A stretch of 64,000 nt of DNA from Calditrichota bacterium (GTDB lineage Bacteria; Zhuqueibacterota; Zhuqueibacteria; Zhuqueibacterales; Geothermadaptataceae), in contig QQUE01000008.1 of the NCBI GenBank assembly GCA_008501765.1, positions 62,001-126,000 on the forward strand, read 5' to 3'. Both the position numbers and the translations under genes were made by a program. The notes under the pieces were generated by a model. The model was not told where the DNA came from. It did not search any database and worked only from the letters and a program-made list of their open reading frames with translations. Each line of letters starts with the position of its first letter. The stretch's first letter is position 1. Shown in pieces: positions 3,592 through 12,676 of this stretch.

Positions 3592-3849
3592 TGAGCTGCC
3601 TCATATATTGAATCTATGAATTGTAATATGTTGTTGGACGGGATTAAATAATTACCTGGTTCTCTAATTTATTAAACATACCGAACAATCGAAAAAAACG
3701 CAGATTAAATCCCTTGTTTGCACGTGTCAATTTTGTGTTAATTTGTTGGCAAGACGTTGATTTACCGTTTATTTTAAAACAAAATTCGCAAATTTTGGAT
3801 AAATTTGTGTCAAATCAGGCCGGATTTTTGTGAAAATTAGAAAAAATAA

Positions 3850-3878
3850 TTGACAACATGAAAAAAACACCTTACTTT
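3850..3878 (+). promoter_or_regulatory. Sigma70-like promoter for the 3982 small gene
   Basis: TTGACA at 3850-3855 and TACTTT at 3873-3878 are separated by exactly 17 bp. They sit in an AT-rich gap of about 390 bp between the divergent membrane glycosyltransferase and a 65-residue gene starting at 3982. Nothing else was seen in the rest of the gap (3592-3849). Confidence 0.55.
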
Positions 3879-3981
3879 TCCTATGTGCAGGATGCCAACC
3901 ACCAGACAACAGGGATGACATCTCCTTCATCAAACTTTTCCTTTTGCTGATGAGTCACACTCAAAAAATGAGGTGGTCATA

Positions 3982-4179
3982 ATGTCAATCGGTAAAACAC
4001 TTGTGAATCTCTCTCACCGCGATCGATGGCTTTTATTTTCAACACTCGTCCAAAGTGACAAAAATTATGTCCCGGACGGAACCCGCCAGATAAATCCATT
4101 TATCGATCAGAATGAATCATTTGAGAACCGTTTTTTTAAAAAAGCCGAACGCATTTCGCGCTTGCGAGGGATCACCTGA
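3982..4179 (+). CDS. Small hypothetical protein, 65 residues
   Basis: The protein is basic and mostly hydrophilic, with no membrane segment and no motif I recognise. It begins MSIGKTLVNLSHRDRW and ends SRLRGIT. The ATG at 3982 is chosen because AGGTGG at 3971-3976 is well placed as a ribosome binding site; a GTG at 3973 lies inside that site. A promoter with a 17-bp spacer lies 100 bp upstream and a hairpin with a T-run lies 90 bp downstream, so this looks like a self-contained single-gene unit. That context is the main reason to believe the gene. Its function is unknown. Confidence 0.55.
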   Translation: MSIGKTLVNLSHRDRWLLFSTLVQSDKNYVPDGTRQINPFIDQNESFENRFFKKAERISRLRGIT

Positions 4180-5212: not shown

Positions 5213-5545
5213 ATGAAAATCCGAATGAGCATAGTGTTGATCGCGGCATTCTTTGTTTTAAGTTGTGCCGGTGGTGTTAAAGTAGCCGATATCGAGGCGC
5301 AGCCGGGAAAATACAACGATAAAAATGTTAAAGTTAAAGGCAAGGTCGTACAAACTTTTGCCGTTCCGTTTTTATCCCAAAGTTTGGTAAAAATTGATGA
5401 TGGCACCGGCGAAATTTGGGTGAAACCCTACGGAAAAGTACCGTTTAAAGGCGAAAAAATCAGCGTCGACGGAACATTGAAAGTTGGGTTGACCATCGCG
5501 AACCAGAATCTTGGCTTTATTGTTATCGAGAAAGAGAAGAAATAG
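5213..5545 (+). CDS. OB-fold lipoprotein
   Basis: The 110-residue protein starts with a lipoprotein signal peptide whose lipobox is VLSC (Cys18), so the mature chain should be lipid-anchored and exported. The rest reads as an OB-fold: VKVKGKVVQTF, then IDDGTGEIWVKPYG, then KISVDGTLKVG, similar to the small exported nucleic-acid-binding-like OB domains of the YgiW or tRNA-anticodon type. The ligand is unknown. An AGGAGG at 5203-5208 makes this one of the strongest ribosome binding sites in the region. Confidence 0.75.
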   Translation: MKIRMSIVLIAAFFVLSCAGGVKVADIEAQPGKYNDKNVKVKGKVVQTFAVPFLSQSLVKIDDGTGEIWVKPYGKVPFKGEKISVDGTLKVGLTIANQNLGFIVIEKEKK

Positions 5546-5639
5546 CTGTTTTAAATTTAAGTAAGTTGTATATTTAAATTGTGTGGTTGGAAGTTCAACA
5601 AATTATAATGTGCCAAATTTATAAACGTTGAGGGGTAAT

Positions 5640-6971
5640 ATGGCAATTAACGCTTTTTTGAGTTCAAGTTTTTCTTCCGAAGATTTAGAGTTGATTTCCC
5701 GCGTCAAGGAATTACTAAACTCAGTGGGGATTCACCCAGTTCAAGCAGAAAATCCATCCGAAATACCAAATGATATCATTGCGATGATAGAACAATATGA
5801 TTTATTTTGTGCTGTTCTAAGCGAACGAAGTCATGGAAATATTCCAGAAGCGGTCTCCTTTGAGCTAGGAATTGCATTAACTAAAAAAAAGAACATAATA
5901 GTCTTCCGGGAAGATAAAATTCCAGTCCAAAGTATGTACTCTGGAAAGCTTCAGAAAGCATTCAATAGGGCAAAAATAATAAATCGGGATGAACAAGAAT
6001 TTGATAAGTTATCAAAAACCGTTGAAGATCTACTCAAAATATATGGTTTTGATCCACCATCTTTACTACTTGAGAATAATACTATAAAAAGATATGAATT
6101 TGCAAAAGAGCAGGCTCAGCTTTTAGGAAGTACGATTCTACGCTATTATAATGATGTGTTTTATAAAAATTCAGTTCGAAATTCTAAAATACAGAATTAT
6201 CCGACAGAAGCGGATATTGTTGCTAATCGAATAATTCAGAGGGAGATAGAAAGGGATCGGGAGTTTGGAAAAGATAGATTTATTTCTGAGGAAGATAATA
6301 ATAACCCTGAAAAAAAAATCAGTGAATTAGTAGCACAATCGGATGATCGTTCTGAATACACTTGGGTTATTGATCCTTTAGATGGGACCCTAAATTTTGC
6401 CTATAATTTCCCATTTTTTGGTGTATCAATTGGGGTATTAAAAAATACAGAGCCGGTAATTGGGGTAGTTTATAACCCTACAACTCAAGAAATTTATTGT
6501 GGATTAAAAGGGAGGCAGTCCGAATGCATTGACTTAAGAACTGGGCAGAAAAAGCTATTGAATGTGATAGATTACAAGACCGAATTACGAGATTCAATAC
6601 TAATGACGCATCTATCAACGAAAGAACCAGGAAGACTTAAAACAATTGAAGTACTCAATCCAATTATGAAACATTGTCGAAATGTGCGAATGCTTGGATG
6701 TGGTCAAATGGCCCTAATTTCCATAGCATTACGACAATTTGATATCTTTTTCAATTATTCAACTAATATTTGGGATGTTATTGCGGGAGCAGTAATTCTA
6801 TCTGGAGCTGGAGGGTACGTTACTACGTCCTTAACAAAAGATTCAAGGTGGAATCTATTTTCGCAAGGGATATTAGCAGCATGTAATGATAACATTGGGA
6901 ATAAAATCAGAGAATTGTTAGCCGCAGAATTGCAGGATGACTTTCCGAATTTAATGGGAAGAAAAAGCTGA
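5640..6971 (+). CDS. TIR-like domain fused to inositol-monophosphatase-family phosphatase
   Basis: This 443-residue protein has two domains. Residues about 1-130 look like a TIR or nucleoside-deoxyribosyltransferase-type Rossmann domain: a first strand NAFLSSSF, an AVLSERS segment, and AVSFELGIAL with Glu75 where NAD- and nucleoside-cleaving members carry the catalytic acid. Residues about 150-430 are an IMPase-family phosphatase with all metal-site motifs: TEAD, SEED at about 216-219, IDPLDGT at about 244-250, and IWDVIAGA at about 377-384. IMPases hydrolyse inositol phosphates, 3'-phosphoadenosine 5'-phosphate or NADP, depending on the subfamily. The ATG at 5640 follows GAGGGG at 5630-5635; a TTG at 5628 is too early. 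The gene is visibly more AT-rich than its neighbours, which suggests transfer. Both domains are intact; substrate and role are unknown. Confidence 0.8.
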   Translation: MAINAFLSSSFSSEDLELISRVKELLNSVGIHPVQAENPSEIPNDIIAMIEQYDLFCAVLSERSHGNIPEAVSFELGIALTKKKNIIVFREDKIPVQSMYSGKLQKAFNRAKIINRDEQEFDKLSKTVEDLLKIYGFDPPSLLLENNTIKRYEFAKEQAQLLGSTILRYYNDVFYKNSVRNSKIQNYPTEADIVANRIIQREIERDREFGKDRFISEEDNNNPEKKISELVAQSDDRSEYTWVIDPLDGTLNFAYNFPFFGVSIGVLKNTEPVIGVVYNPTTQEIYCGLKGRQSECIDLRTGQKKLLNVIDYKTELRDSILMTHLSTKEPGRLKTIEVLNPIMKHCRNVRMLGCGQMALISIALRQFDIFFNYSTNIWDVIAGAVILSGAGGYVTTSLTKDSRWNLFSQGILAACNDNIGNKIRELLAAELQDDFPNLMGRKS

Positions 6972-7063
6972 AAATGATACGGTTGAAATACCCTTAGGAC
7001 TGTTATACTAACTAATATTTTAGTGAAACAGACTATGTTTAGAGATCAAAAATATTACAAGGA

Positions 7064-11974: not shown

Positions 11975-12676
11975 TCATTTGATGATTTCAATGATTTGTT
12001 TGAAACGTATCGTTTTACCCCATTTATTGAGAGGAAATATTTTATAATTTATTGCCATCTGAGTTGTTTGATTTGGTATAAATAATTTGAAATAAAACAT
12101 TTCAAATACGTTGCATTCAACCGCACCTTTCAAAACAGCCATTGGTGTGGTTAAATTAAGTCTTTTATAATAGTTAACGATTCTATTGTCAGGTATTAAA
12201 TCGCGGCCCTTTTTTCCAACATATGCTTCATCAACAAACAGGGAATCAATGGCAGCAGCTTCTGTCTCAATTTCCACAATTTTAATGTCATCTGTTCCAT
12301 TAAAATTAACATCTGAAAATGTGATTACGAGGTTATAATCTACCAGGTCTCCATTTCCATAATTATAAAGCAATATTGGCAAATCATATTCATTGTTCTT
12401 CAGGCATTTAATCGTCCTTTTAGGATTTAAAAAATAGGAATTATTCTCCATATTCCCACGTTTCACTTTTTTGGCAAAAATATTTTTATTAAAATGAAAT
12501 TCATCAGTTTGATGCTTCTTGCCAAAATCGGATAATTGTAGATTCGTGCCCAACTCATAAAATGGTAAAATACCCACCAATATTTCTGGTTTGTTGAGAA
12601 GAGAAATAATAAATAAGATCAAGGGGTAAATGGCTAAAACGGCAAAGACTGTTGAAATCACTGCGAGTAATTCCAT
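11975..12676 (-). CDS. Hypothetical membrane-anchored protein between glcF and glcD
   Basis: This 233-residue protein has one N-terminal transmembrane helix (about residues 5-28) and a long soluble part with a beta-rich pattern. Nothing in it is familiar. It is visibly richer in A+T than the glc genes on either side. It is on the same strand, with 45 bp to glcF and 59 bp to glcD, so it would be carried on the same transcript. It may be a recent insertion, since glcD and glcF are normally adjacent. Confidence 0.55.
   Translation of the reverse strand: MELLAVISTVFAVLAIYPLILFIISLLNKPEILVGILPFYELGTNLQLSDFGKKHQTDEFHFNKNIFAKKVKRGNMENNSYFLNPKRTIKCLKNNEYDLPILLYNYGNGDLVDYNLVITFSDVNFNGTDDIKIVEIETEAAAIDSLFVDEAYVGKKGRDLIPDNRIVNYYKRLNLTTPMAVLKGAVECNVFEMFYFKLFIPNQTTQMAINYKIFPLNKWGKTIRFKQIIEIIK

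What the first reader, a model, noticed from the sequence alone, without database searches (positions are those of the whole stretch)
5640..6971. TIR-like domain fused to an intact IMPase-family phosphatase
Seen: one reading frame joins a Rossmann-type N-terminal domain with a Glu in SFELGIAL to a phosphatase with all metal motifs (TEAD, SEED, DPLDGT, WD-xx-AGA). The gene is clearly AT-richer than its neighbours. Known: TIR domains of bacterial defence cleave NAD or make cyclic ADP-ribose signals; IMPase relatives include NADP phosphatase, as in an archaeal NAD kinase-phosphatase fusion. Inference: the two halves could act in sequence on NAD(P), or one could process the product of the other. 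I do not know a described system with this architecture.
Basis: partly seen in the sequence, partly recalled or inferred. Interest (0 to 1): 0.72.

Follow-up and report, generated by a model that had tools for sequence, protein, structure and literature searches.

The report
Orphan TIR/NDT-like domain fused to phosphatase
A bacterium carries one foreign-looking gene that joins a domain of the TIR/nucleoside-cleaving fold to a complete inositol-phosphatase-type enzyme, a combination found nowhere else I could search, so it may be an unusual one-protein enzyme acting on NAD or other nucleotides, but this is untested.

Summary
One intact 443-codon frame (5640-6971) joins a ~135-residue alpha/beta domain with a Glu (E75 in SFELGIAL) to a complete IMPase-family phosphatase (Pfam 2.6e-46, all metal motifs). 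A structure model made with remote viral relatives (pLDDT 79, pTM 0.72) has the TIR/nucleoside-deoxyribosyltransferase fold. Its best solved matches mix plant and SARM1 TIR, SPARTA TIR-APAZ, CMP N-glycosidase, DNPH1 and NDT. By sequence it sits just below the curated cut-offs of both TIR_2 and NDT, so 'TIR' is only one of two readings. GC3 is 0.26 against 0.40-0.50 in most neighbours. A congener has a clean empty site, so the gene was gained alone as a ~1.5-kb insert among housekeeping-type genes. No second fusion turned up in all 82 held genomes of the phylum, 795 genomes of two other phyla, plasmids, phages or viral contigs, nor with a gapped fusion pattern over 85,000 species genomes (limited sensitivity). 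The closest N-terminal relative found is fused to a nuclease-like domain on Agrobacterium plasmids and links to PycTIR. Most likely: a horizontally spread nucleotide-conflict enzyme whose halves act in sequence on NAD(P) or a nucleotide. That coupling is inference. An unreported orphan architecture made of known parts.

The parts
5640..6971 (+). Two-domain fusion gene, 443 aa: TIR/NDT-superfamily domain plus IMPase-family phosphatase
5640..6059 (+). N-terminal TIR/NDT-fold domain (about residues 1-140); strands at 3-8, 31-35, 55-60, 85-90, 112-115
   Evidence: Pfam NDT 27.1 and TIR_2 25.4 bits; model pLDDT 78.9; Foldseek
5862..5864 (+). Glu75, invariant in the alignment with 20 superfamily members; candidate catalytic Glu
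   Evidence: E75, G77, A79 invariant
6060..6092 (+). Linker between the domains (about residues 141-151)
   Evidence: low pLDDT 142-147 in the N-domain model; IMPase match starts at 152
6093..6929 (+). IMPase-family phosphatase domain, residues 152-430, with all metal-binding motifs
6372..6389 (+). DPLDGT metal-binding motif (residues 245-250)
5546..7062 (.). Inserted segment, absent at the same place in congener G068 (13-nt spacer there); the interval in G069 also lacks the gene

Best explanation
This is a horizontally acquired, stand-alone two-domain enzyme. The N-terminal domain belongs to the TIR/DRHyd (NDT-like) Rossmannoid superfamily, and its Glu75 is the likely catalytic residue for breaking a base-sugar (N-glycosidic) bond in NAD(P)+ or a related nucleotide. 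The C-terminal domain is an intact Mg2+-dependent IMPase-type phosphatase that would remove a phosphate from the substrate or product of the first reaction, for example the 2'-phosphate of NADP/phospho-ADP-ribose or a released sugar phosphate. The most likely role is nucleotide depletion or signalling in a conflict (anti-phage) setting. Shown here: the frame, the domain families, the fold, the intact motifs, the foreign composition and the empty site. Inferred: both activities, their coupling, the substrate and the defence role.
For: Inositol_P 2.6e-46 with all metal motifs. The N-domain fold matches TIR NADases (SARM1, SPARTA TIR-APAZ, Cat1), NDT and nucleotide N-glycosidases. Glu75 is invariant. 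The closest N-domain relative found is an Agrobacterium plasmid protein with a C-terminal Mrr-type nuclease-like match (below Pfam cut-off) next to a gene annotated as a restriction endonuclease; it matches the PycTIR profile clearly. The two-sequence profile finds solved PycTIR at 2.2e-5. GC3 0.26 in both halves and a clean empty site in a congener. The genome keeps separate SuhB-like and CysQ-like proteins, so the fusion is not the housekeeping copy. IMPase-family NADP phosphatase activity is known in the archaeal NAD kinase fusion (PMC8553519).
Against: It is a singleton, so conservation of the fusion cannot be tested. No defence gene lies beside it: the flanks are an NTF2-like gene, a putative small lipoprotein gene, a zinc-ribbon-like gene and a glycosyltransferase (the last three by my reading of the sequence). 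PADLOC found nothing. The N-domain lacks the NDT DxGT motif and scores below both Pfam cut-offs. No NCBIfam phosphatase equivalog reaches its cut-off, so the substrate is open. The match to PycTIR runs through the Agrobacterium sequence, not through this protein alone.
Confidence: 0.38

Rival explanations
1. The N-domain is a nucleotide or nucleoside N-glycosidase/deoxyribosyltransferase of the NDT/DNPH1/BcmB type, and the phosphatase removes phosphate from the released (deoxy)ribose 5-phosphate or from the nucleotide: a bifunctional salvage, clean-up or biosynthetic enzyme rather than a NADase.
For: NDT is the best Pfam match (27.1 bits). BcmB, NDTs and DNPH1 are among the top structural matches. 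The viral NDT profile scores the domain above all 2000 shuffles (10.8 against 5.9 bits) while the small own-genome TIR_2 profile does not.
Against: The DxGT motif before FELG is replaced by NIPEAVS. The viral profile was built from NDT-like rows collected with an FE-G-A pattern, which favours NDT. The Agrobacterium relative points to PycTIR.
Confidence: 0.24
2. The N-domain is a non-catalytic ligand sensor or assembly domain that switches on the phosphatase, which is the effector (for instance by depleting NADP or PAP).
For: TIR/DRHyd/SLOG domains serve as sensors as well as enzymes (PMC9503650). The closest relative found is fused to a nuclease-like domain that could be the effector.
Against: Glu75 and the surrounding ELGxA are kept.
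Confidence: 0.22
3. The N-domain is an inert remnant joined to an ordinary third IMPase, with no functional coupling.
For: No second fusion was found; the phosphatase is a long branch.
Against: The domain is complete in the model, with all five strands and Glu75 kept. Both halves share one composition.
Confidence: 0.1

Closest known systems
Agrobacterium tumefaciens plasmid protein WP_173995394.1 (pAtH25_79a): TIR-like domain plus Mrr_cat-like region
   Same: 37% identity over 52 residues around FELG, with a similar order of elements in the extended frame; TIR/NDT-like domain at the N-terminus of a two-domain protein
   Different: C-terminal part matches a restriction-nuclease family (Mrr_cat, below cut-off), not a phosphatase; it lies next to a gene annotated as a restriction endonuclease
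PycTIR (Pycsar effector; PF10137)
   Same: Same superfamily; top solved match of the two-sequence profile (2.2e-5)
   Different: PycTIR has an N-terminal cyclic-nucleotide-binding domain and a cyclase gene beside it; neither is present here. PF10137 alone gives only 13.5 bits
Nucleoside 2-deoxyribosyltransferase / CMP N-glycosidase BcmB / DNPH1
   Same: Fold and catalytic-type Glu in an FELGxA motif
   Different: DxGT motif absent; fused to a phosphatase
DUF4062 TIR-like NADases (Swarozyc; PMC13174449)
   Same: Another TIR-like family between TIR and NDT, reported to hydrolyse NAD+; human TEP1 also NADP+
   Different: No DUF4062 match in Pfam at E<=10; different architectures
Archaeal NAD kinase/NADP phosphatase (MJ0917 type; Haladaptatus plasmid homologue)
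   Same: IMPase-family phosphatase fused to an NAD-acting domain; 32% identity over 248 aa in the phosphatase
   Different: Partner is NAD kinase, not a TIR/NDT domain; the NADP phosphatase equivalog model gives only 53.9 bits against a cut-off of 493
SuhB-type inositol monophosphatase
   Same: All motifs; falls on the SuhB/IMPase side of the tree, apart from CysQ (99/99)
   Different: Long unresolved branch; carries the extra N-terminal domain

Membership tests
IMPase family (PF00459) | Profile match above the curated cut-off | tested here: met
   158.7 bits against 27
IMPase family (PF00459) | Metal-binding and catalytic motifs (E..E, DPxDGT, WD) | tested here: met
   Invariant against own SuhB-like and CysQ-like proteins
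IMPase family (PF00459) | Phosphatase activity and substrate | not testable with these tools
   No NCBIfam equivalog reaches its cut-off
TIR domain (TIR_2, PF13676) | Profile match above the curated cut-off | tested here: not met
   25.4 bits against 28 for the domain alone
TIR domain (TIR_2, PF13676) | Flavodoxin-like TIR fold | tested here: met
   Foldseek matches RPS4, SARM1 and SPARTA TIRs at 1e-5 to 2e-4, TM 0.6-0.67
TIR domain (TIR_2, PF13676) | Catalytic Glu in the helix after the third strand | tested here: met
   Glu75 in helix 70-81
TIR domain (TIR_2, PF13676) | NADase or cyclase activity | not testable with these tools
   Needs assay
Nucleoside 2-deoxyribosyltransferase (PF05014) | Profile match above the curated cut-off | tested here: not met
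   27.1 bits against 28.8
Nucleoside 2-deoxyribosyltransferase (PF05014) | DxGT motif ahead of FELG | tested here: not met
   NIPEAVSFELG in the sequence
Nucleoside 2-deoxyribosyltransferase (PF05014) | Fold | tested here: met
   NDT entries 6qai, 2a0k, 7o62
Pycsar effector PycTIR (PF10137) | Cyclic-nucleotide-binding domain and adjacent pyrimidine cyclase | tested here: not met
   No such domain in the protein and no cyclase-like gene noted among the adjacent ORFs
DUF4062 / Swarozyc | DUF4062 profile match | tested here: not met
   Not listed by Pfam at E<=10
Catalogued anti-phage defence system | Match to PADLOC models | tested here: not met
   No match
Bifunctional NADP phosphatase (PRK14076) | Equivalog cut-off | tested here: not met
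   53.9 bits against 493

The most novel reading that the evidence does not exclude
A one-protein conflict enzyme in which a TIR/DRHyd domain cleaves NAD(P)+ or a nucleotide and a fused IMPase-type phosphatase acts on the same substrate or product: for example NADP+ to NAD+ feeding the NADase, or dephosphorylation of phospho-ADP-ribose into a signal or irreversible end product.
Probability: 0.22. Interest if true: 0.65.

Novelty: new variant of a known kind. Interest (0 to 1): 0.42.

Why it matters
TIR-type NADases are usually joined to sensors or nucleic-acid-guided modules. A phosphatase fused to such a domain would mean that phosphate removal is part of the same nucleotide-processing step. 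It would offer a compact, directly assayable two-step enzyme on NAD(P) or nucleotides. As a singleton it is a lead and does not yet define a system.

Tried and rejected
Single-sequence AlphaFold of the whole protein failed (pLDDT 36); an alignment with remote viral relatives gave the usable N-domain model. The gapped fusion pattern hit two plain IMPases by chance. Fragment and subset alignments were mis-registered and not used for folding. Repeat boundaries of the insert: no convincing terminal repeats and no other genomic copy (only matches of 18-30 nt, E>=0.09). Rfam and tRNA: nothing. Promoter-like sites were not above shuffle expectation. Assigning the phosphatase substrate from the tree was not possible: the joint placement with the Haladaptatus NADK-IMPase is flagged as a possible long-branch artefact and is left open.

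Full report
What is there. The frame ATG 5640 to stop 6971 encodes 443 residues without interruption. Residues 152-430 are an Inositol_P domain (2.6e-46). Motifs TEAD, SEED, DPLDGT and WD-AG are intact and line up with the genome's own SuhB-like and CysQ-like proteins. Those two are encoded elsewhere in the genome, next to mutS2-like and ligA-like genes by my reading of their sequences. Residues 1-147 score 27.1 bits for NDT (cut-off 28.8) and 25.4 for TIR_2 (cut-off 28), just short of both.

Fold of the N-domain. A single-sequence model of the whole protein failed. With 20 remote viral relatives (NDT-like and FELG-type proteins) the domain modelled at pLDDT 78.9, pTM 0.72, with a five-stranded alternating alpha/beta pattern and Glu75 in helix 70-81. 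Against solved structures the best matches are a mixture: RPS4 TIR, CMP N-glycosidase BcmB, SARM1 TIR, deoxyribosyltransferases, SPARTA TIR-APAZ (TM 0.67), DNPH1 and the CRISPR effector Cat1. The fold is therefore the TIR/DRHyd class, not a degenerate linker, but the data do not separate NADase-type TIR from NDT/N-glycosidase. A caution: the alignment rows are mostly NDT-like, so they may pull the model that way.

Relatives of the N-domain. A plasmid search found one better relative, an Agrobacterium protein with the stretch SMIEEADIFVAVL...FELGLAIGMRK (37% over 52 residues). Its C-terminal part has a sub-cut-off match to an Mrr-type nuclease, and it lies beside a gene annotated as a restriction endonuclease. 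That protein scores 41.6 bits with a profile built from PycTIR-type sequences, against 7.6 for the best of 2000 shuffles of the window domain. The window domain itself does not exceed those shuffles with the PycTIR profile (2.6 bits) but does with the NDT-like viral profile (10.8 against 5.9). A two-sequence profile of the window and Agrobacterium domains finds solved PycTIR at 2.2e-5, then NDTs. So the window domain is a divergent member of the superfamily that looks closer to NDT-like proteins on its own and to PycTIR through one intermediate.

Origin. In congener G068 the small lipoprotein gene that ends at 5545 is followed after a short spacer (13-14 nt) by sequence matching window 7063 onward. 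In G069 the same interval also lacks the gene. The segment 5546-7062 is thus a gain of one gene in the window's lineage (or its loss in both congeners, which its composition makes less likely). It lies inside a 262-kb contig among housekeeping-type genes, without defence neighbours. No convincing terminal repeats and no other genomic copies were found.

Distribution. N-domain or full-length searches found no second fusion in all 82 held genomes of the phylum, 398 genomes of the phylum of G083 (the Silicimonas, Pseudomonadota, locus), 397 genomes of the phylum of G082 (the Nautiliaceae, Campylobacterota, locus), plasmids, phages or viral contigs. A gapped DNA pattern for FE-[LIMV]-G-x-A ... D ... 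DPxDGT over 85,000 species genomes gave only two chance hits in plain IMPases. That pattern required one Phe codon and a limited spacing, so it would miss part of the real relatives; absence is not proven.

Phosphatase. It falls with SuhB/IMPase-type enzymes and apart from CysQ (99/99), but as a long unresolved branch. Among the plasmid hits listed, the highest bit score belongs to the phosphatase half of a Haladaptatus NAD kinase-IMPase fusion, 32% over 248 residues. IMPase-type domains in such fusions act as NADP phosphatases (PMC8553519). This is suggestive only: no substrate model reaches its cut-off.

Mechanism. Shown: intact motifs, fold, invariant Glu75, single foreign-looking gene. Inferred: N-glycosidic cleavage of NAD(P)+ or a nucleotide by the N-domain, and removal of a phosphate from substrate or product by the IMPase half. 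Precedents are NAD(P)+ hydrolysis by TIR-like domains (PMC13174449) and phosphatases coupled to ADP-ribose-releasing enzymes in conflict loci (PMC9503650). The main rivals are a nucleotide N-glycosidase plus sugar phosphatase, and a non-catalytic sensor that controls the phosphatase.

Verdict. A real, intact, foreign-looking and so far unique two-domain architecture made of known families. The literature searches found no description of it. It is worth an assay, but as a singleton without defence context it is a lead, not an established system.

Noticed in passing
G000 contig C8: 291213-291566, 845141-845455, 848617-848958; contig C1: 19019-19378 (loci L021-L024): Four other ORFs in the same genome match TIR_2 above the cut-off (open frames 829, 954, 566 and 518 aa); two of them lie about 3 kb apart on C8.
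   Followed up: no
window 11975-12676 (-): A second AT-rich ORF (GC 0.315, GC3 0.30, 233 aa) between the glcF-like and glcD-like genes, possibly another foreign insert.
   Followed up: no
window 3848-4179: A 330-bp stretch 81% identical to congener G069, more conserved than the flanking genes, with only a possible 68-aa ORF (GTG start, 3973-4179) and no Rfam match.
   Followed up: partly
L091:2974-3783 (Agrobacterium plasmid pAtH25_79a): TIR/NDT-like domain followed by a weak Mrr_cat match, next to a gene annotated as a restriction endonuclease and near an ATP-binding protein; the annotated start seems too late, since in-frame upstream sequence supplies the first strand and helix.
   Followed up: partly
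L088:924-2642 (Haladaptatus halobius plasmid): NAD kinase-IMPase fusion of 572 aa with the kinase at the N-terminus.
   Followed up: partly
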